This document shows positions 9,015 to 19,255 of a DNA stretch of 64,000 bases, one piece after another (positions within the stretch are counted from its first letter, which is position 1; every line of letters begins with the position of its first letter). Both the position numbers and the translations under genes were made by a program. The stretch lies in NCBI RefSeq assembly GCF_030246885.1, contig NZ_CP126739.1, forward strand, positions 2,108,001 through 2,172,000. The letters run 5' to 3'. The notes beneath the pieces are model-generated. The model searched no databases. It was not told the DNA's origin and saw nothing but the letters and a program-made list of their open reading frames with translations. The DNA comes from Microbacterium sp. zg-B185. GTDB lineage: Bacteria; Actinomycetota; Actinomycetes; Actinomycetales; Microbacteriaceae.

Positions 9015-9949
9015 AGCGCACCGCGACCGTCTGGATCGCCGCGGGTGCAGCCGTCCTGCTGGTGATCGCCGGGGCGCTGGCCTGGTGGTCGCTCAGCCGG
9101 CCGCCCAGCGCGGAGGATGCCGCTCGCAGCTACCTCACCGCGCTCGCCGGGGGCGATTTCGCGACGATCGACGCCATGCGCGGCAACGACGTGGACGAGG
9201 ACGCCGAGCGGGTTCTGATGGACTCGTTCGCCGGCGCCGACGCGTACGCCTCGGAAACCCGAGTCGAGGAGATCACGACCGGCGCCGATGCGACGACTGT
9301 GCGCGCATCGGCCGTGATCGCCGGGGAGCGCCGCGAGGTGTCCTTCGCACTCCGAGACGACGGCGGCCGGTGGGAGCTCACCGGCGACTACCTGGCGTCT
9401 CTCGAGGTGACCGTGGTGTCCGCCGCGGGCACGCCGCTCGGGGATTCCGCGTGGGTGGGCGGTGCGCTGGCGCCGACGGCGCGCCCCATCCTGCTGCTGC
9501 CCGCCGAGTATCCGGTTCGCCCCGCGCCCCGCGGACTCCTGACCGGCGAAGCCTCCGTCGCGCTCAGCACCGACGAGCCCGCCGCTGTGCGCATCAACGC
9601 ATCCATCGCCCCGGACGCGACCGCTGCCGGCCAAGCGCAGCTGAACGCGTACGCGGACGCGTGCACGCAGCCGGCGTCCGCGGTGCCCCCCGACTGCGGC
9701 CTGCGGGTGCCCTGGGCGGCCGACCTGGCCACACTGGAGTCCATCGCCTTCCGGATCGAACAGCTGCCCGTGCTCGCCTTCGCCCCCGACCAGCGCACGT
9801 TCGCCGCAACCGGTGGCGTCGTGGTGGCCACCGCCACCGGGCTGACCTCTGACGGCGGTGCAACGAGCTTCACCTATCGCGCGGACGACTGGTCATTGCG
9901 TGGGACGGTGACTTTCCGCGGCGACGAGATGGTGCTCGCACTGGACTGA
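9011..9949 (+). CDS. Membrane-anchored extracytoplasmic protein, DUF4878-like, function unknown
   Basis: A 312-residue protein with an N-terminal membrane anchor (about residues 7-28, VWIAAGAAVLLVIAGALAWW). It is followed by AEDAARSYLTALAGGDFATIDAM, a helical pattern typical of DUF4878/NTF2-like extracytoplasmic domains of actinobacterial lipoprotein-like proteins. The remainder is beta-rich. Two cysteines (DACTQ and PDCGL) could form a disulphide. It overlaps the YcaQ-like gene by four bases, so co-expression is likely. No enzymatic motif was found. A cell-envelope role is inferred only from the anchor and domain type. Confidence 0.72.
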   Translation: MKRTATVWIAAGAAVLLVIAGALAWWSLSRPPSAEDAARSYLTALAGGDFATIDAMRGNDVDEDAERVLMDSFAGADAYASETRVEEITTGADATTVRASAVIAGERREVSFALRDDGGRWELTGDYLASLEVTVVSAAGTPLGDSAWVGGALAPTARPILLLPAEYPVRPAPRGLLTGEASVALSTDEPAAVRINASIAPDATAAGQAQLNAYADACTQPASAVPPDCGLRVPWAADLATLESIAFRIEQLPVLAFAPDQRTFAATGGVVVATATGLTSDGGATSFTYRADDWSLRGTVTFRGDEMVLALD

Positions 9950-12039: not shown

Positions 12040-12076
12040 GGATCTCGATACGCCGTCCGCGGGGCGGCTACACGAG
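12040..12076. repeat. Intergenic palindromic element between lemA and htpX
   Basis: A GGATCTCGATACG end, a GCCG/CGGC stem with a GC-rich loop, and a CTACACGAG end. The GGATCTCGAT end and the CTAC-CGA end match the reverse complement of the element at 7609-7644, so they look like members of one dispersed family. It could act as a terminator-like barrier between the two genes. Confidence 0.5.
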
Positions 12077-12782: not shown

Positions 12783-14093
12783 TCACCCGAGCACACGCCG
12801 GAGGTAGGGGTTGTCGAACATCCGGTCGGGGTCCAGCCGATCGCGCAAGGCGACGAACTCGTCGAACCGCGGGTATCGGCCCCGCAGCATCCCGGCGTCC
12901 AGCGAGTGCAGCTTGCCCCAGTGCGGGCGACCCTCGAACCCGATCATGATGTGCTCCACGGCCTCGAAATACTCCGCGTGATCCTCCCGCCAGTAGCGGT
13001 GCACGGCGATGTATCCGGACGCACGCCCGTGCGCGGTCGACATCCACACGTCATCGGCTGCGGCGAAGCGCACCTCGACCGGGAAGGCGATCCGCCACCC
13101 GCGGTCCTCGATCAGCGCGCGCACGGCCTCGAACGCGGGTCGGACGTTCCCGGCCGGCACCGCGAACTCCATCTCGCGGAAGCGGACGAATCGTTCTGTC
13201 GCGAAGACGCGGGCCGAGGCATCCGTGAATTCGCGATCGCTCCACACTCTGGCTGAGAGCCGGTTGATCGCCGGCGCCGCGGCCGGGACCGTCCGCGCGA
13301 TGCTGCAGGCGAGCTGGTGGGCCAGGCCACCGACGGCGACGTCGTCGACCCATCTGCGCAGCGGCGGCAGCGGGTGACGCACGGCGCTCTCCGGCAGGCG
13401 CGTGTTGGTCTTGGTCATCGCCAGCTCGGTGTGCGGAAACCAGTAGAACTCGAAGTGATCGGACGCCGCGACGAGCGAGTCCAGACTGCCCAAGACCGCA
13501 TCCAACGGCTCAGGGCGCTCCACCGCGTGCAGCAGGAAGGCGGGCACGCACTGCAGCGTCACTTCCACCAGGATGCCCAGCGCACCCAGACCCAGAGCGA
13601 CGGCCCCGAGCAGGTCGGTGTTCTCGTTCTCATCCACCGTGAGCAGGTCACCGCCCGCAGTGATCAGCGTCACGCCGGTCACCTGCGTGGCCAGGCCGCC
13701 GAAGCGCGCCCCGGTGCCGTGCGTGCCGGTCGAGATCGCCCCGGCGATGGATTGACGATCGATGTCCCCCAGGTTGGGCATGGCCAGTCCATACGGCGCC
13801 AGCAGCTTCGGCACCTGATGCAGCCGCGTGCCGGCGCGCAGGGTGACCCGTGCGCGGTCACGGTCCACTGAGACGAGCCCGGTCAGGTCGGTCAGATCCA
13901 GCAGCACGCCGGGGGCCAACGCGATGCCGGTGAAGCTGTGACCGGCGCCGACCGCCTTGAGCGGCATCCCGCGCGCAGCGGCGGCCTGGACGGAGCGCTG
14001 CACGGCGGCGGTCGAGGCGGGCGCTTCGACCCGCTGCGGCCGGACGGTCTCGGTGCGACTCCAGTTGTGCCACGTTCCGCCGAGACGGGTCAC
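12783..14093 (-). CDS. FAD-linked oxidase, D-arabinono-1,4-lactone oxidase / L-gulonolactone oxidase family
   Basis: A 436-residue flavoprotein of the VAO/PCMH fold with a C-terminal ALO domain. The FAD-binding domain has GAGHSFTGIALA, whose His can link covalently to FAD, followed by SIAGAISTGTHGTG. The ALO domain has GRPHWGKLHSLD and ends in FDNPYLRRVLG, both hallmarks of aldonolactone oxidases. The likely reaction is oxidation of a sugar or polyol lactone using oxygen or another acceptor, with the substrate not defined. The GTG at 14093 overlaps the upstream stop codon (GTGA), so it is translationally coupled to the PLP enzyme gene. Confidence 0.88.
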   Translation of the reverse strand: MTRLGGTWHNWSRTETVRPQRVEAPASTAAVQRSVQAAAARGMPLKAVGAGHSFTGIALAPGVLLDLTDLTGLVSVDRDRARVTLRAGTRLHQVPKLLAPYGLAMPNLGDIDRQSIAGAISTGTHGTGARFGGLATQVTGVTLITAGGDLLTVDENENTDLLGAVALGLGALGILVEVTLQCVPAFLLHAVERPEPLDAVLGSLDSLVAASDHFEFYWFPHTELAMTKTNTRLPESAVRHPLPPLRRWVDDVAVGGLAHQLACSIARTVPAAAPAINRLSARVWSDREFTDASARVFATERFVRFREMEFAVPAGNVRPAFEAVRALIEDRGWRIAFPVEVRFAAADDVWMSTAHGRASGYIAVHRYWREDHAEYFEAVEHIMIGFEGRPHWGKLHSLDAGMLRGRYPRFDEFVALRDRLDPDRMFDNPYLRRVLG

Positions 14094-15319
14094 AGGAAAG
14101 CCTTCCCCTCGCCCCGGTAGGTGGGCGCTTCGCCGACCGCTCGTCCGTCCTCCACCAACCGGTAGCGCTCCACCCGCTCGGCCAGCTCTCCGCTCTTGGC
14201 ATGACGGAACCACACCCGGTCGCCGACGGCGAGCGATCGTGCGGAATCCCCCCGCAGCGGGGTCTGCACCTCGCCGGCCCCTTCGCGCGCCAGCATGGTC
14301 AACCCCGCCGGCCACACCGGCATCGGCTGGCGCGAGGCCAGCGGCGGGCCGGACGCGATCCAGCCGCCGCCGAGGACCGTCGCGATCTCCGGCATCGGCT
14401 TTCGCACGACCTCGAGGCCGAACGCGGCCGCCGGCGCCGGATCGAACGCGCGATAGCCGTCGAAGAGATGACCGGCCAGCAGCCCGCTCCCCGCGGTCAA
14501 CTCGGTGACGGCCAGATCGGATGCGGTCAGCTCGAGCGATCCGGTTCCCCCGCCGTTGACGAACTCCAGCGGGGCGATGTCCCGCAGCGCCGACACGACG
14601 ACGGCCCGCCGTTCCAGGAGCTCCTGTGCGGAGCGGCGCTGCATCCAGCGGATGATGCCGTCCCCGGCGCCGGTGGCATCTCCCTGGCCCGCTATCTGCG
14701 CCTCGTACATCATGAGACCGACCAGGCGGAAGCCGCGCCGAGCAGCGATCGCGCGAGCGAGGCCGGCCACTTCGCCCGGCTCGTGCAGCGGCGAACGCCG
14801 CACACCGATGTGCCCCAACCCGGGAGCGCGCCACGATGCATCGGCGTCGATGGCGACGCGGATCGTCGCACGCGCTGCGGGGGCCGCCACTGCATCGACC
14901 AGATCCAGCTGCGCGAGGTCGTCCACCATCAGGGTGACCCGGGATGCGGCCCGGTCATCGGCGGCCAGGCGGGCGATCGCAGCGCGGTCCGCCGTCGGGT
15001 ACCCCATCACCACGTCGTCATGCTCTTCAGCGAGCCAGAGCGCCTCGGGAAGGGCGAAGGCGAGGATGCCGGAATATCCGGGCAGTGCGAGCACGGCATC
15101 GAGCACGTCCCGCACGCGGACCGATTTGCTGGCGACGCGGATCGGTACCCCGGCGGCCCGCACCAGCATGTCGAGGGCGTTGTATCGCAGGGCGGGAAGA
15201 CTCAGCGCTGCAACCGGCCCGGAGATCTCCGCGACGGCAGCGTCCACCGACCTCCAGTAGACGGCGGGGTCCGCCCAGGGCGTCCCCGAGCCGGCGGTGG
15301 AGAGCAGGTCGATCGTCAC
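14090..15319 (-). CDS. Alanine racemase N-domain / D-threonine aldolase-like PLP enzyme (amino acid deaminase/aldolase)
   Basis: A 409-residue fold-type III PLP protein. The cofactor lysine is in IRVASKSVRVRDVL. Downstream motifs are YPTADRAAIARLAADD and EFVNGGGTGSLELT, as in the amino acid deaminase/aldolase family related to D-threonine aldolase. The C-terminal part is the D-Ser-dehydratase-like beta domain (VGDRVWFRHAKSGELAERV). Two starts are possible: GTG 15319, with GGAGAA nine bases upstream, and GTG 15349, eight bases after TAGGCT at 15358-15363. I chose 15319. The 3' end overlaps the FAD oxidase start by four bases, suggesting a shared pathway, perhaps amino-polyol or hydroxy-amino-acid turnover. 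Confidence 0.85.
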   Translation of the reverse strand: MTIDLLSTAGSGTPWADPAVYWRSVDAAVAEISGPVAALSLPALRYNALDMLVRAAGVPIRVASKSVRVRDVLDAVLALPGYSGILAFALPEALWLAEEHDDVVMGYPTADRAAIARLAADDRAASRVTLMVDDLAQLDLVDAVAAPAARATIRVAIDADASWRAPGLGHIGVRRSPLHEPGEVAGLARAIAARRGFRLVGLMMYEAQIAGQGDATGAGDGIIRWMQRRSAQELLERRAVVVSALRDIAPLEFVNGGGTGSLELTASDLAVTELTAGSGLLAGHLFDGYRAFDPAPAAAFGLEVVRKPMPEIATVLGGGWIASGPPLASRQPMPVWPAGLTMLAREGAGEVQTPLRGDSARSLAVGDRVWFRHAKSGELAERVERYRLVEDGRAVGEAPTYRGEGKAFL

Positions 15320-15357
15320 GGCATCACGTTCTCCGGCGAGGGGAAGCACATGGCGTA

Positions 15358-15363
15358 AGCCTA
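15358..15363 (-). promoter_or_regulatory. -10 box upstream of the D-threonine-aldolase-like gene
   Basis: Minus-strand TAGGCT. Transcription would start near 15350. This gives either a nearly leaderless GTG at 15349 or a leader of about 32 bases to the GTG at 15319. Confidence 0.5.
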
Positions 15364-15411
15364 GGGCTGCGCCGGAAAGGGTTCCGCACACCGTCCTGCG
15401 GATGGTGCGAG

Positions 15412-15453
15412 GAACCGTACCCCCGGTGGGATTCGAACCCACACTTGGGCGAT
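15412..15453. repeat. Attachment-site copy: 3' half of the tRNA(UAA) gene, left end of the island
   Basis: A perfect 42-base match to 17736-17777, in the same orientation. It covers the 3' half of the tRNA from the anticodon loop through the T arm and acceptor strand, plus six bases beyond the 3' end. The missing 5' half and the break in the anticodon loop are what tyrosine-integrase recombination into a tRNA gene produces. An imperfect inverted repeat (AGAGGGTTGC with GCAACaCCCTCT) follows at 15454-15485. Confidence 0.85.
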
Positions 15454-15667
15454 AGAGGGTTGCGAATCACTCGGCAACACCCTCTCCCTACGTGGCGTGG
15501 CGGCCACGGCTCCGTGCACACAAGACAGCAGCCCGCACGCGCCTCTGTCGACCATCCGGGAGACCACGCGCCGCGGTGTGCTGGAAGGAAGACGGGTGGC
15601 CCCCCTCCGGGAATCGGGGGAATCCCCGAAGAGAGGCTGACACCTGTCGGCGTCGCCAGGCGTCGTG

Positions 15668-15727
15668 CAACATTTGACGCCCCGCGTCCATTCACCTGGG
15701 GGCGAAGGACGCGGGGCGTTGATGTTG
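15668..15727. terminator. Long hairpin downstream of the tiny peptide gene
   Basis: Perfect 13-base arms (ACGCCCCGCGTCC at 15677-15689 and its complement at 15707-15719) are extended by outer CAACAT/ATGTTG arms. On the minus strand the hairpin begins 11 bases after the peptide stop codon, as expected for its terminator. Confidence 0.65.
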
Positions 15728-15737
15728 AAACTCGTGA

Positions 15738-15791
15738 TCACCTCCACCAGCTCATGAGCCAGCGTAGGAACCCCCAGAGTTCAGCGAACAT
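15738..15791 (-). CDS. Putative 17-residue Trp-rich hydrophobic peptide
   Basis: The peptide reads MFAELWGFLRWLMSWWR, with four tryptophans, two arginines and one acidic residue. The ATG is preceded by GGGGAGG with a five-base gap, the strongest ribosome-binding site in this region. A long hairpin follows the TGA. Together these look like a real short gene. The composition resembles small membrane-active peptides such as type I toxins, but a leader peptide is also possible. I know no family match. It lies inside the tRNA-flanked island, downstream of the HEPN-like gene on the same strand. Confidence 0.45.
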   Translation of the reverse strand: MFAELWGFLRWLMSWWR

Positions 15792-16012
15792 GTCGACCTC
15801 CCCACCGTTGTCGTATGAGTTCCGATCATCCGGTACCACGCTCCTGCACCTCAATACCTCCGTCTCCCCAGAAAACCCCTCCGCACCGAAGCGGACAGTA
15901 GGGGATGCGCGGTGCGGGGTACGCGGAGATACGTCGTCGTCGTCGAGTGGACGCCGTGGCCGCCGACCAACGTCGCGTGGCGGAACGCGGTGAGCCGACG
16001 ACAGTGCGTGCC

Positions 16013-16501
16013 TCAATCGTCCTCGGTGAGTCCCTCGTAGAACCCGACGACCGTTCGGAGGGTTGGCACCACCGCCGCCTGGGACAGATGTGCACGGTAG
16101 TAGGGCCTGCGATCAGTCTGGTTCTTCCGTGGCGCCTCGAGTTCTTCCTCGACGTCGCCGAAGTCCGACCATCGCATCATCGCGCCGGTAACCACCGCAA
16201 GCCCCGGATGCAGATGATCGCTCGGAGACAGCTCACCGAAGGCTGACTCCACCACCAGCGAGTGGGTATTCACGTTGCGCACTAGGTTCAGCGCACCAGT
16301 GAGCTGACCGTCCGGCGTTCCGTCGACGGCATCCCAATAGACGTTCTTGAGCCGTTTATGCAAGGCATCCTGTACCCGGTACACCAGCGCCAGTGCGGAT
16401 TCCACGGCCCGGCGCCGGCTGTCAGCATCCGTCGCTACGTCCAGTACCTCCGCGTGGAACGTGATGTCGTCCAGCATCGTTTGGATTTGTCGTTCGAGCA
16501 C
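16013..16501 (-). CDS. Hypothetical protein with possible HEPN-type RNase motif
   Basis: A 162-residue, mostly helical protein that I cannot place in a named family. The segment LNLVRNVNTHSLVVES contains Arg75-Asn-Val-Asn-Thr-His80, matching the R-x4-6-H motif of HEPN ribonucleases found in toxin-antitoxin and phage-defence systems. The helical N-terminal half (YRVQDALHKRLKNVYWDAV) would fit a HEPN bundle. The GTG at 16501 is chosen because TACGAT lies seven bases upstream. A longer reading frame would run back through the hairpin repeat. It sits in the tRNA-flanked island. A defence or toxin role is inference. Confidence 0.6.
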   Translation of the reverse strand: MLERQIQTMLDDITFHAEVLDVATDADSRRRAVESALALVYRVQDALHKRLKNVYWDAVDGTPDGQLTGALNLVRNVNTHSLVVESAFGELSPSDHLHPGLAVVTGAMMRWSDFGDVEEELEAPRKNQTDRRPYYRAHLSQAAVVPTLRTVVGFYEGLTEDD

Positions 16502-16508
16502 ACGTCGA

Positions 16509-16514
16509 ATCGTA
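16509..16514 (-). promoter_or_regulatory. -10 box of the HEPN-like gene, leaderless type
   Basis: Minus-strand TACGAT lies seven bases before the GTG at 16501 and starts about 24 bases downstream of the hairpin repeat at 16538-16593. Confidence 0.5.
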
Positions 16515-16537
16515 GGGCGGTCGACCCCATAGCGGCT

Positions 16538-16593
16538 ACGACGAATAACGCCCCCGAACCCACCCAATAAGGGGTGAGCCCGAGGGCGTCAGG
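16538..16593. repeat. 56-base hairpin repeat, copy 1
   Basis: Shared with 17505-17560. The outer arms ACGCCC/GGGCGT and inner arms CACCC/GGGTG are conserved between copies, while the six-base loop differs (AATAAG here, GGTGAA in the other copy). It lies between the zinc-ribbon gene and the HEPN-like gene and may terminate the former. Confidence 0.75.
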
Positions 16594-16686
16594 AGCCAAT
16601 GTTGCCAGCCTCGCCGGGCACGGAGGACGGCGAGGATCTAGATCGGGACCCCAGTTCAATGCATTCGGCAGCGAGCTATTGGTCCT

Positions 16687-16830
16687 TCAGAGGCTCAGGC
16701 GGACATCGTGAGCTGGCGGAGAAGGAACCTCCCACGAGTGGTCACACTTCTTGCACTCGAATGCGGCGCGAACCGCCACGCGGGCGTCCATGGCTTCGAT
16801 GTTGTGCGAGCCGCACTCAGGGCAGGTCAT
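16687..16830 (-). CDS. Small zinc-ribbon protein
   Basis: A 47-residue protein with two CxxC knuckles: CPECGSHNIEAMD near the N-terminus and FECKKCDHSWEV, giving a classic zinc-ribbon. The ATG at 16830 starts MTCPECGSH. A longer frame upstream adds only 13 residues without a motif. CACACT lies six bases before the ATG and may serve as a poor -10 box. Such proteins bind nucleic acid or act as small adaptors, and nothing in the sequence fixes the role. It lies in the island between the membrane protein and the HEPN-like gene. Confidence 0.6.
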   Translation of the reverse strand: MTCPECGSHNIEAMDARVAVRAAFECKKCDHSWEVPSPPAHDVRLSL

Positions 16831-16933
16831 GCACTCAGTGTGCCAGCGACGGGTCACACCCGGGTCCACCCGCTGAATGTTCTGAGTTGCCGGCGGGGAT
16901 GGGAGAACCCAACTGACCGATGCGGTGCTCCGT

Positions 16934-17419
16934 CTAAATCTGCGCTGGTCGCTCGCTCGGCCTCAGCGGCTGTTCTGGGGCATCGAAGGGCGCATGTGTG
17001 CGGTGATAGCAGCGCGAGAAGTACGCGTTGGAAGAAGGTAGGAACTGCAGCACGACGGCCACCACATTTATGGCCGCAGCGATACAGTTCAGCGCAGTCA
17101 CATACCCGAAATGGAAAGTGATGACCGCGAGGCCCAGTCCGGCCAGCGCCGTGAGGACTGTACGGGCCCAAACGTGGCCGCGGAGCATGAACCACGCGAA
17201 CACCAGTCGGGCCAGGCTCCAGGCCGCAAGCAGCACCCCGATCCCCGCTGCCCTCTCGCTGTGGCTGGCCGGCACCGCGAGCAGATGGCCTGGGGAGGGG
17301 ACCGCGGAAAACAGGAGTACCGCGCTGACCAGACCTACCGCCGTGCCCAATATCCACAACCCAGACGCCCATGTCACGGCACGGGGGTGACCTTGGTGGT
17401 CTGCATCGCTCGTGGGCAT
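16934..17419 (-). CDS. Island membrane protein, four predicted helices, function unknown
   Basis: A 161-residue protein with about four hydrophobic segments: TWASGLWILGTAVGLVSAVLL, GIGVLLAAWSLARLVFAWFML, VLTALAGLGLAVITFHFGYV and ALNCIAAAINVVAVVLQFL. A short polar C-terminal tail follows. No conserved motif was recognised. The ATG at 17419 follows GGAGG by only three bases. It is the first gene of the island's minus-strand series after hairpin repeat copy 2. Some DoxX-like or DUF-type four-helix membrane proteins look similar, but I cannot assign one. Confidence 0.62.
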   Translation of the reverse strand: MPTSDADHQGHPRAVTWASGLWILGTAVGLVSAVLLFSAVPSPGHLLAVPASHSERAAGIGVLLAAWSLARLVFAWFMLRGHVWARTVLTALAGLGLAVITFHFGYVTALNCIAAAINVVAVVLQFLPSSNAYFSRCYHRTHAPFDAPEQPLRPSERPAQI

Positions 17420-17504
17420 GATCCTCCAGCAGATTCCCGGCCGACCCTACCCGGTTGATCGCAAGATACCCCGATTCGCATATGAGGACAACGATGGCGG
17501 GCAC

Positions 17505-17560
17505 ACGACGAAAGACGCCCCCGAACCCACCCGGTGAAGGGTGAGCCCGAGGGCGTCAGG
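17505..17560. repeat. 56-base hairpin repeat, copy 2
   Basis: Matches 16538-16593 except in the loop and at a few positions. It is upstream of the island membrane protein on the minus strand. Confidence 0.75.
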
Positions 17561-17679
17561 GCGTTCAGAGTAAGCGTTCGATTGGGGGCACAAGCGACCG
17601 ACTACATCCAGATTCTGCACGAGGGACCCGACCGACTTCAACGCTCGCGATGTTCGCTGAAAACAGCGAGTAAATAGCG

Positions 17680-17717
17680 AATGCGCCCCATCCGGCCGGA
17701 GCCAGTTGGGGCGCATT
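17680..17717 (-). terminator. Hairpin downstream of the tRNA(UAA) gene
   Basis: Perfect 11-base arms AATGCGCCCCA (17680-17690) and its complement (17707-17717), lying 25 bases past the tRNA 3' end on its strand. Confidence 0.6.
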
Positions 17718-17735
17718 GCGCGGAATCACGCGGGA

Positions 17736-17777
17736 GAACCGTACCCCCGGTGGGATTCGAACCCACACTTGGGCGAT
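17736..17777. repeat. Attachment-site copy within the intact tRNA gene, right end of the island
   Basis: Perfect 42-base direct repeat of 15412-15453. Here it is joined to the 5' half of the tRNA, so the gene is whole. Confidence 0.85.
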
Positions 17778-17815
17778 TTTAAGTCGCCTGCCTCTGCCGG
17801 TTGGGCTACGGGGGC
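17742..17815 (-). tRNA. tRNA with UAA anticodon (tRNA-Leu by codon), short variable loop
   Basis: A 74-base cloverleaf. The acceptor GCCCCCG pairs with CGGGGGT (G1-U72 wobble), the discriminator is A, and CCA is not encoded. The anticodon stem GGCGA/TCGCC holds the loop CTTAAAA, giving anticodon TAA. The T arm is GTGGG-TTCGAAT-CCCAC. The variable region is only about five bases, whereas bacterial tRNA-Leu normally has a long variable arm. The decoding assignment therefore follows the anticodon, and aminoacylation identity is less certain. Its 3' half is the attachment site of the island. Confidence 0.85.
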
Positions 17816-17845
17816 GTGCACGCGGGCCCGCCTCCACGGTACCGG

Positions 17846-19255
17846 TCAGCCGCGTGCGGAGACCTGCTTGGGTGCATCCGCCACGACGGGCGCCTTGACG
17901 GGAGCCGCCTCGACGGGCTGCGGCGTGCGCGGGCGAGCGGCGAATTCTTCGAAGACGTACCGCGGATCCTGGACGGCCTGCAGATTGACCAGGTCGCGGC
18001 CCAGCCACAGGTTGTTCCACCAGCCCCACACGACCCGGAACTTGCGCTCCCACGACGGCATCGCCAGGCCGTGGTATCCACGGTGCGCGACCCACGCGAT
18101 GAACCCCTTGAGTGCGAGGTTGCCGGATTGGAAGACGCCGTTGTACAGACCGAGGCCGGCGACCGCGCCCAGGTTCTTGTGGAAATACTCACGCGGCAGC
18201 TCGCCGCGCAGGACCGCCACGAGGTTCTTGGCGAGCAGCTTTGCCTGGCGGACGGCGTGCTGCGCGTTCGGAACACAGTATCCGCCGACGCCACCGCCGG
18301 ACAGGTCGGGAACGGCCGAGACATCCCCTGCTGCCCAGGCGCCCTCGACGATCTCGTCGTCGGTGCCCACGCGGAGGTCGGCGCGGGTCTGGATGCGACC
18401 GCGTTCCTCGACGGGCAGGTCTCCGCCGCGGACGACGGTCGGGTTGGCCATGACGCCGGCAGTCCAGATGATCAGGTCGCTCGGAATCACCTCCCCGGTG
18501 GACAGCTCGACGTTGCCGCCGAGGGCGCCGGTGACCTGGGTGTCCAGGTGCACGTAGGCGGCGCGCTTGGCGAGATCCTTCAGCACCCATTCGCTGGTCT
18601 TCAGCGACACCTCGGGCATGATCCGGCCCATCGCCTCGATGAGGTGGAAGTGCGTGTCGTCGAAGGTGATCTCCGGGTAGCGCGCCACCAGCGACGACGC
18701 CAGGGAACGCAGTTCTGCGAACACCTCGATTCCCGCGAACCCGCCGCCGACCACGACGACCGTCAGCAGACGGTCCCGCTCGGGTCCGGGCGGAAGCGTG
18801 GAGGCCTTGTCGAAGTTGGACATCAGGCGGTCGCGGATCGCGACCGCCTCCTCGATCGTCTTGAGTCCGATCGCGTTGTCGGCGATGCCCGGGATCGGGA
18901 ACGTGCGCGAGACGGCCCCGGCGGTGACCACGATCTGGTCGTACTCGAGTTCGTAGGGCGCACCGGCGATCGGGGTGATCGTGGCGACTCTGTTCGCGTG
19001 GCTGATCCCGGTCACCTTGGCGGCGACCACCGTGGTGCGCTTGAGGTGGCGGCGCAGCGCGACGACGGAGTGCCGGGCTTCGATGGATCCGGCCGCGACC
19101 TCGGGCAGGAACGGCTGGTAGGTCATGTACGGCAACGGGTCGACGATGGTCACCTCGGCCTCGCCCTTGCGCAGATGCTTCTCGAGCTTCCAGGCAGTGT
19201 AGAAGCCCGCGTAGCCGCCACCGACTATGAGGATTTTTGGCACGGTGTTGCTCAC
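17846..19255 (-). CDS. ndh: Type II NADH dehydrogenase (NDH-2)
   Basis: A 469-residue flavoprotein that oxidises NADH and reduces menaquinone without pumping protons, at the inner face of the membrane. The N-terminal FAD-binding GGGYAGFYTAWKLE and the second dinucleotide-binding VVVVGGGFAGIEVFAEL are intact. The C-terminal third has SGGGVGGYCVPNAQHAVRQA, typical of NDH-2, and an amphipathic region near FRVVWGWWNNLWLGRDLVN for membrane contact. About 40 Pro/Ala-rich residues follow at the end. The GTG at 19255 has AGGAG about ten bases upstream. It lies 20 bases after the protease gene on the same strand. Confidence 0.94.
   Translation of the reverse strand: MSNTVPKILIVGGGYAGFYTAWKLEKHLRKGEAEVTIVDPLPYMTYQPFLPEVAAGSIEARHSVVALRRHLKRTTVVAAKVTGISHANRVATITPIAGAPYELEYDQIVVTAGAVSRTFPIPGIADNAIGLKTIEEAVAIRDRLMSNFDKASTLPPGPERDRLLTVVVVGGGFAGIEVFAELRSLASSLVARYPEITFDDTHFHLIEAMGRIMPEVSLKTSEWVLKDLAKRAAYVHLDTQVTGALGGNVELSTGEVIPSDLIIWTAGVMANPTVVRGGDLPVEERGRIQTRADLRVGTDDEIVEGAWAAGDVSAVPDLSGGGVGGYCVPNAQHAVRQAKLLAKNLVAVLRGELPREYFHKNLGAVAGLGLYNGVFQSGNLALKGFIAWVAHRGYHGLAMPSWERKFRVVWGWWNNLWLGRDLVNLQAVQDPRYVFEEFAARPRTPQPVEAAPVKAPVVADAPKQVSARG

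What the first reader, a model, noticed from the sequence alone, without database searches (positions are those of the whole stretch)
15412..17777. A 2.3 kb island bounded by a perfect 42-base duplication of a tRNA 3' half
15412-15453 and 17736-17777 are identical over 42 bases, and the second copy is the 3' half of an intact tRNA gene with anticodon UAA. The break point is in the anticodon loop, a usual crossover site for tyrosine integrases. The segment between has no core gene and no integrase, so it looks like a decayed or trans-mobilised integrative element.
Basis: partly seen in the sequence, partly recalled or inferred. Interest (0 to 1): 0.75.

Follow-up and report, generated by a model that had tools for sequence, protein, structure and literature searches.

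The report
Prophage stump at a leucine tRNA
A short stretch of DNA beside a leucine tRNA gene looks like the leftover of a virus that once inserted itself there: both insertion scars and the tail end of the virus's insertion gene remain, which makes it a clear but ordinary genomic fossil.

Summary
The 42-base repeat is real and exact: the last 37 bases of an intact tRNA-Leu(UAA) gene plus 5 bases downstream, with no third copy in the genome. Many genus relatives, including the closest one examined, have a compact site without the island. Three relatives carry 45-47 kb segments between this tRNA and a displaced 36-39 base copy of its 3' end; the one typed (G188) has phage head, tail and packaging genes. 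In all three a tyrosine integrase gene ends next to the tRNA. The island also keeps, without mismatch, a 21-base motif that stands near both ends of the complete elements; its partner at the other end is missing. So the island is a deletion remnant of an element with this tRNA-Leu-associated integrase, most likely a siphovirus-type prophage. Another genome (G262) holds a second decayed example at the same tRNA. Three small reading frames of unknown function remain. The closest resident relative of this integrase is 35% identical, so mobilisation in trans is not supported, though not excluded. A known kind of thing; interest is low to moderate.

The parts
17741..17815 (-). intact tRNA-Leu(UAA), the integration target, restored
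   Evidence: ARAGORN, Rfam tRNA 59.1 bits
17736..17777 (-). att core copy at the tRNA (attL)
   Evidence: 42 of 42 identical to the other copy
15412..15453 (-). displaced att core copy, the former tRNA 3' end (attR)
   Evidence: the flank beyond it matches the tRNA-proximal flank of relative G190
15454..17735 (.). island between the cores, 63.6% GC against 69.4% and 69.5% in the flanks
   Evidence: matched at length only in its own genome among 198 genus genomes
17586..17677 (+). frame-broken 3' end of a tyrosine integrase gene, about 30 codons
   Evidence: matches the ends of integrase genes beside tRNA-Leu(UAA) in G188 and G039 and in viral contigs L157, L144, L145
17660..17680 (+). 21-base motif AAAACAGCGAGTAAATAGCGA, inferred integrase arm-type site
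   Evidence: 0 mismatches; present near both ends of three complete elements
17677..17721 (+). hairpin, terminator-like, between motif and core
   Evidence: -31.9 kcal/mol, z -4.1
16934..17419 (-). 161-aa reading frame, hydrophobic by eye, unknown function
   Evidence: 4 other relatives, 54-64% identical
16687..16869 (-). 60-aa zinc-ribbon-like reading frame
   Evidence: matches below the curated cut-offs only
16013..16477 (-). 154-aa reading frame (184 aa from a TTG start), no relatives found
   Evidence: only itself among 403 candidates
16538..16593 (-). 56-base hairpin repeat, copy 1
   Evidence: 89% identical to copy 2; z -5.6
17505..17560 (-). 56-base hairpin repeat, copy 2
   Evidence: z -4.8

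Best explanation
The segment is the stump of an integrated element. A tyrosine integrase recombined the element's attP, which carried a copy of the 3' end of tRNA-Leu(UAA), with the host tRNA gene. This restored the tRNA at one end and displaced its old 3' end to the other. Later deletions removed nearly all of the element, leaving about 30 codons of integrase, one flanking motif, a hairpin and three small reading frames. The progenitor was most likely a 45-47 kb siphovirus-type prophage like those at this tRNA in relatives. Shown by sequence: exact core repeat, compact sites in relatives, complete elements with nearly the same core edge, integrase remnant, one motif copy. Inferred: that the motif is an arm-type site, that the progenitor was a prophage, that deletion made the island small, and that it no longer excises.
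For: Exact 42-base core, two copies in the genome. Flank-to-flank join matches the closest relative G190 without mismatch across the tRNA. Of 57 fetched loci with the tRNA in this orientation, 34 have the racemase-like gene within 500 bases, and 4 more lack it but have the next gene within 163 bases. G188, G039 and G057 hold 44.9, 45.8 and 47.1 kb between the tRNA and a second 39-, 36- and 37-base copy of its end. The four integrases most like that of G039 are the ones beside tRNA-Leu(UAA) among 30 loci fetched. Nine of ten G188 proteins tested matched PHROGs, among them terminase, portal, major head and tape measure. Integrase-end match at window 17601-17712, E 4e-11 with G188. Motif: 8 sites in 6 of 366 genomes, control 0. 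GC lower than the flanks.
Against: No phage structural gene is left, and apart from the integrase end no part of the island resembles the four elements (best other hit E 0.004), so the kind of progenitor is inferred. The DNA next to the displaced core is not shared with them either. The three frames have no phage relatives. G342, with the same integrase at the same tRNA, shows neither the motif nor a second tRNA copy in the 18.5 kb fetched. One of 200 shuffles of the remnant region also reached E 1e-3.
Confidence: 0.84

Rival explanations
1. A small integrative element or satellite, not a full prophage, used the same integrase family; the three small genes are its own cargo, and mainly the integrase was lost.
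For: The small frames do not resemble the complete prophages and the 161-aa frame is intact with relatives at 54-64%.
Against: The complete elements found at this tRNA with this integrase are 45-47 kb, and the three viral contigs with 72% identical integrases are 44-47 kb; no small complete element was seen.
Confidence: 0.11
2. The island is still mobilised in trans by a related integrase, resident or brought by a phage.
For: Identical cores and one motif copy without mismatch.
Against: The closest resident relative is 35% identical. The second motif, found 82-115 bases inside the far core in complete elements, is absent within 15001-18000 at up to 6 mismatches. Only one of 198 genus genomes, its own, holds the island at length.
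Confidence: 0.03
3. The tRNA end was copied by a process without integrase, such as a local duplication, and the segment between is ordinary host DNA.
For: Short extra copies of the tRNA end also lie beside this tRNA in G190, G156 and G180.
Against: It explains neither the integrase remnant and motif at the tRNA-proximal end nor the core edge within 2 bases of that of the complete elements.
Confidence: 0.01

Closest known systems
Genomic islands and prophages in tRNA genes of the Islander type, anticodon-centred att class (PMC4383910, passages seen)
   Same: Intact tRNA, displaced 3' fragment in the same orientation, core edge at the anticodon loop.
   Different: Islander requires an integrase gene; here only its 3' end is left, so by that filter it would be rejected.
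Tyrosine-integrase prophages of Microbacterium at tRNA-Leu(UAA) (G188, G039, G057; named records for two of these)
   Same: Same tRNA, core edge within 2 bases, integrase 3' end and motif next to the tRNA.
   Different: 2.3 kb instead of 45-47 kb; no phage genes, no second motif, integrase broken.
Grounded or cryptic prophages (PMC6379469, abstract and section list seen)
   Same: Integrated element that lost its excision functions and eroded.
   Different: Erosion here is almost complete.
CIMEs, cis-mobilisable elements derived from ICEs (recalled, from no call)
   Same: Two att sites without a recombinase gene.
   Different: CIMEs derive from conjugative elements; the one relative whose proteins were typed is a prophage, and one motif copy is lost here.

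Membership tests
Element integrated at a tRNA gene by a tyrosine integrase | intact tRNA plus displaced 3' fragment in the same orientation | tested here: met
Element integrated at a tRNA gene by a tyrosine integrase | site without the element in relatives | tested here: met
   G190; 34 of 57 comparable loci compact by the racemase-like gene
Element integrated at a tRNA gene by a tyrosine integrase | integrase gene inside | tested here: not met
   only a frame-broken 3' end remains
Element integrated at a tRNA gene by a tyrosine integrase | excision or integration observed | not testable with these tools
   needs reads or PCR
tRNA-Leu(UAA) prophage family of this genus | integrase 3' end next to the tRNA | tested here: met
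   remnant only
tRNA-Leu(UAA) prophage family of this genus | 21-base motif near both cores | tested here: inconclusive
   present at one end only; G342 also lacks it in the piece fetched
tRNA-Leu(UAA) prophage family of this genus | phage structural genes | tested here: not met
   no phage-family match for three frames, only weak unknown-function matches for the zinc-ribbon frame
Trans-mobilisable island (CIME-like) | complete att sites and a helper integrase | tested here: inconclusive
   cores identical, far motif missing, no close resident helper

The most novel reading that the evidence does not exclude
The 2.3 kb stump is kept because it still works as a parasite of related phages: identical cores and one intact integrase-binding motif let an incoming tRNA-Leu phage excise and carry it, with the 161-aa and zinc-ribbon proteins acting on that phage.
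Probability: 0.03. Interest if true: 0.65.

Novelty: new member of a known kind. Interest (0 to 1): 0.27.

Why it matters
It points to tRNA-Leu(UAA) as a repeated prophage integration site in this genus and gives the likely attP layout of these phages (integrase end, motif, hairpin, tRNA core, second motif), which helps to place prophage ends. It also shows how small a traceable prophage remnant can become, and that filters requiring an integrase gene miss such stumps.

Tried and rejected
The 161-aa protein matched no phage and no plasmid record; the 184-aa frame matched no phage record and its 154-aa form no viral contig. A DNA search of the island with its ends in the phage records gave 33 records; the 20 listed cover only the tRNA stretch. 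The 161-aa protein has matches at E up to 1e-3 in 18 of 366 genus genomes, its own included; the 17 others are 27-39% identical. The nine of them fetched as loci show no tRNA and no relative of the four integrases in 2.0-3.5 kb, so no shared element was recovered. A defence cassette was considered: PADLOC gave no hit for two of three frames and only weak zinc-ribbon matches for the third. Trans-mobilisation and simple duplication: see rivals. Structure prediction was not run: at most 5 sequences for the 161-aa protein, one for the 154-aa one.

Full report
Observation. The copies at 15412-15453 and 17736-17777 are identical over 42 bases. The second lies in tRNA-Leu(UAA), 17741-17815, minus strand. 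The shared block covers five bases outside the tRNA 3' end and the last 37 bases of the gene, ending at the last base of the anticodon loop. A 34-base core of it with up to 3 mismatches occurs twice in the 3.57 Mb genome, the reversed control not at all. The island between is 2282 bases with 63.6% GC; flanks 69.4% and 69.5%.

Empty sites. The tRNA lies between an NADH-dehydrogenase-like gene (Pfam Pyr_redox_2) and an alanine-racemase-like gene whose Pfam match is just below the cut-off. I fetched 81 loci of genus relatives: 35 whose match reached the tRNA, 2 with island matches and 3 by rank, 1 decayed case, and 40 more by rank (one contig that was too short was skipped). Many more genomes were not fetched. 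In 57 of the 81 the tRNA has the orientation seen here. In 34 of these 57 the racemase-like gene ends within 500 bases of the tRNA, and in 4 more it was not found but the next gene, lemA-like, is within 163 bases. Of the other 19, two are the prophages of G188 and G039, one is G262, two have neither gene in the piece fetched, and 14 have 0.7-6.3 kb without a tRNA copy of 20 bases or more and without an integrase relative; I did not explain these 14. In 24 of 81 the tRNA is inverted and does not bear on the question. Joining the two flanks of the island gives a sequence that matches the closest relative examined, G190 (91% over the neighbouring gene), without mismatch across the tRNA and on into both flanks. 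In 198 genus genomes the island matched at length only itself; 11 other genomes gave pieces of 28-112 bases.

Complete elements at the same tRNA. Two of these pieces, in G188 and G039, lie at the end of an integrase gene (PF00589) beside tRNA-Leu(UAA). A search of 366 genus genomes with the G039 integrase gave matches at E 1e-20 or better in 112. Of 30 loci fetched there, the four best (G039 itself, G188 72%, G342 72%, G057 58%) lie beside tRNA-Leu(UAA); the other 26 lie beside tRNA-Lys, -Thr, -Gly, -Pro or -Met genes or have no tRNA in the fetched DNA. G188, G039 and G057 have a second copy of the tRNA end (39, 36 and 37 bases, 100%) 44.9, 45.8 and 47.1 kb away; its inner edge is at tRNA position 37, 38 and 35 from the 3' end, against 37 here. 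For G342 only 18.5 kb was fetched and no copy was found. The racemase-like gene follows beyond the far copy in G188 and G039 and was not found in 60 kb of G057. Of ten G188 proteins compared with PHROGs nine matched (integrase, metallo-protease, two helicases, terminase, portal, head protease, major head protein, tape measure) and one did not; the siphovirus type is inferred from these, and the other elements were not typed. The best phage records have integrases about 41% identical, in Gordonia and Arthrobacter phages.

The integrase remnant. Window 17601-17712 matches G188 (73%, 113 columns, E 4e-11), 17601-17688 matches G039 (76%, 92 columns, E 2e-9), and 17624-17701 matches viral contig L157 (80%, 79 columns, E 1e-11), where their integrase genes end; the match with L144 starts at 17586. 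The window has single-base insertions and a deletion against them, so the frame is broken. In this search of 208 of 213 fetched loci (five that hold the window's own DNA were left out) the other hits were at further integrase ends, at the decayed site of G262, at the far motif of G039, and one 36-base hairpin match elsewhere in G166. One of 200 shuffles (of dinucleotide blocks) also reached E 1e-3. A tblastn search with the four integrases found no match in the window at E 0.01, so the evidence for the remnant is at the DNA level, by place, and by the three-frame reading.

The 21-base motif. AAAACAGCGAGTAAATAGCGA overlaps the integrase stop codon in G188 and G039 and, with 2 mismatches, in G057. 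A second copy in the same direction stands 82-115 bases inside the far core, with 4, 0 and 2 mismatches. That copy is outside the integrase gene, so its conservation speaks for a role as DNA. G342 has none at up to 5 mismatches in the piece fetched. In 366 genus genomes with up to 2 mismatches it occurs at 8 sites in 6 genomes, control 0; besides the window and the elements named these are G174, at an integrase beside tRNA-Gly, and G262. Viral contig L157 shows the uninterrupted layout: integrase end, motif, hairpin, tRNA-end core, about 115 bases, a second motif with 4 mismatches, and no tRNA gene in the 18.8 kb fetched. By place and direction I take the motif for an arm-type integrase-binding site (inference). 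The window has the first copy without mismatch (17660-17680) and no second within 15001-18000 at up to 6 mismatches.

A second fossil. G262 has 8.6 kb between tRNA-Leu(UAA) and the racemase-like gene, with a broken integrase fragment (residues about 208-385), one motif with 1 mismatch, and a 24-base tRNA-end copy 126 bases from the tRNA. G188 has a further tRNA-end copy (37 of 38 bases) 1.5 kb beyond its prophage. So this tRNA appears to have been hit repeatedly.

What is left inside. Three reading frames on the minus strand: one of 154 aa (184 from a TTG start) without relatives, a 60-aa zinc-ribbon-like frame with matches below the curated cut-offs, and a 161-aa protein with four other relatives at 54-64% identity among 5.8 billion proteins. 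A 56-base hairpin repeat flanks the latter two (16538-16593 and 17505-17560, 89% identical; the only two matches in the genome). The integrase remnant starts about 25 bases beyond the second copy, so a deletion end near that hairpin is possible (inference). Apart from the remnant, no frame matched the four elements better than E 0.004.

Mechanism. Integration at the tRNA by a tyrosine integrase, followed by loss of the integrase and nearly all of the element, accounts together for core repeat, compact sites, integrase end and single motif. Without its integrase the island cannot excise unaided, and the missing far motif makes excision with help unlikely (both inferred). The closest resident relative of the integrase is 35% identical. 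The perfect repeat and the absence from G190 suggest integration after the split from G190, or loss there; the calls cannot tell which.

Known context. A restored tRNA with a displaced fragment is the signature used by Islander, which counts 2083 of 3919 islands as anticodon-centred and rejects candidates without an integrase (PMC4383910, passages seen). Erosion of trapped prophages is the subject of PMC6379469 (abstract and section list), and tRNA fragments left by integrated elements that of PMC9897764 (abstract and section list). One search for Microbacterium, prophage, attachment site and tRNA-Leu (three of four terms) found 36 papers and listed 12, none with Microbacterium in the title; I opened none of those 12, so I make no claim that this site is unpublished.

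Noticed in passing
L044 11839-11875, L046 11946-11969 (window orientation); L183 7728-7761 and 7891-7918: Short extra copies of the tRNA-Leu end ending in the T-arm (positions 18-24) lie close to the tRNA in G190, G156 and G180; in G190 the copy is part of a longer local duplication. They may be remnants of another integrase class.
   Followed up: partly
24 of 81 fetched loci, e.g. L174, L175, L181: The tRNA-Leu(UAA) gene is inverted relative to the same neighbouring genes, so this small locus has flipped within the genus.
   Followed up: no
L173 (G262) 9216-9758, 11963, 12042-12065: A second decayed element at the same tRNA: broken integrase, motif and a 24-base tRNA-end copy.
   Followed up: partly
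G188, window orientation of the stretch: 13030-13067 and 14600-14638: A further tRNA-end copy 1.5 kb beyond the prophage, as if an older small remnant lay next to a newer prophage.
   Followed up: partly
window 16538-16593 and 17505-17560: A strong 56-base hairpin occurs only twice in the genome, at both sides of the 161-aa and zinc-ribbon frames.
   Followed up: partly
L055, L056, L058, L059, L061, L063, L068, L176: About 2-6 kb between tRNA and racemase-like gene without a detectable tRNA copy or integrase relative.
   Followed up: no
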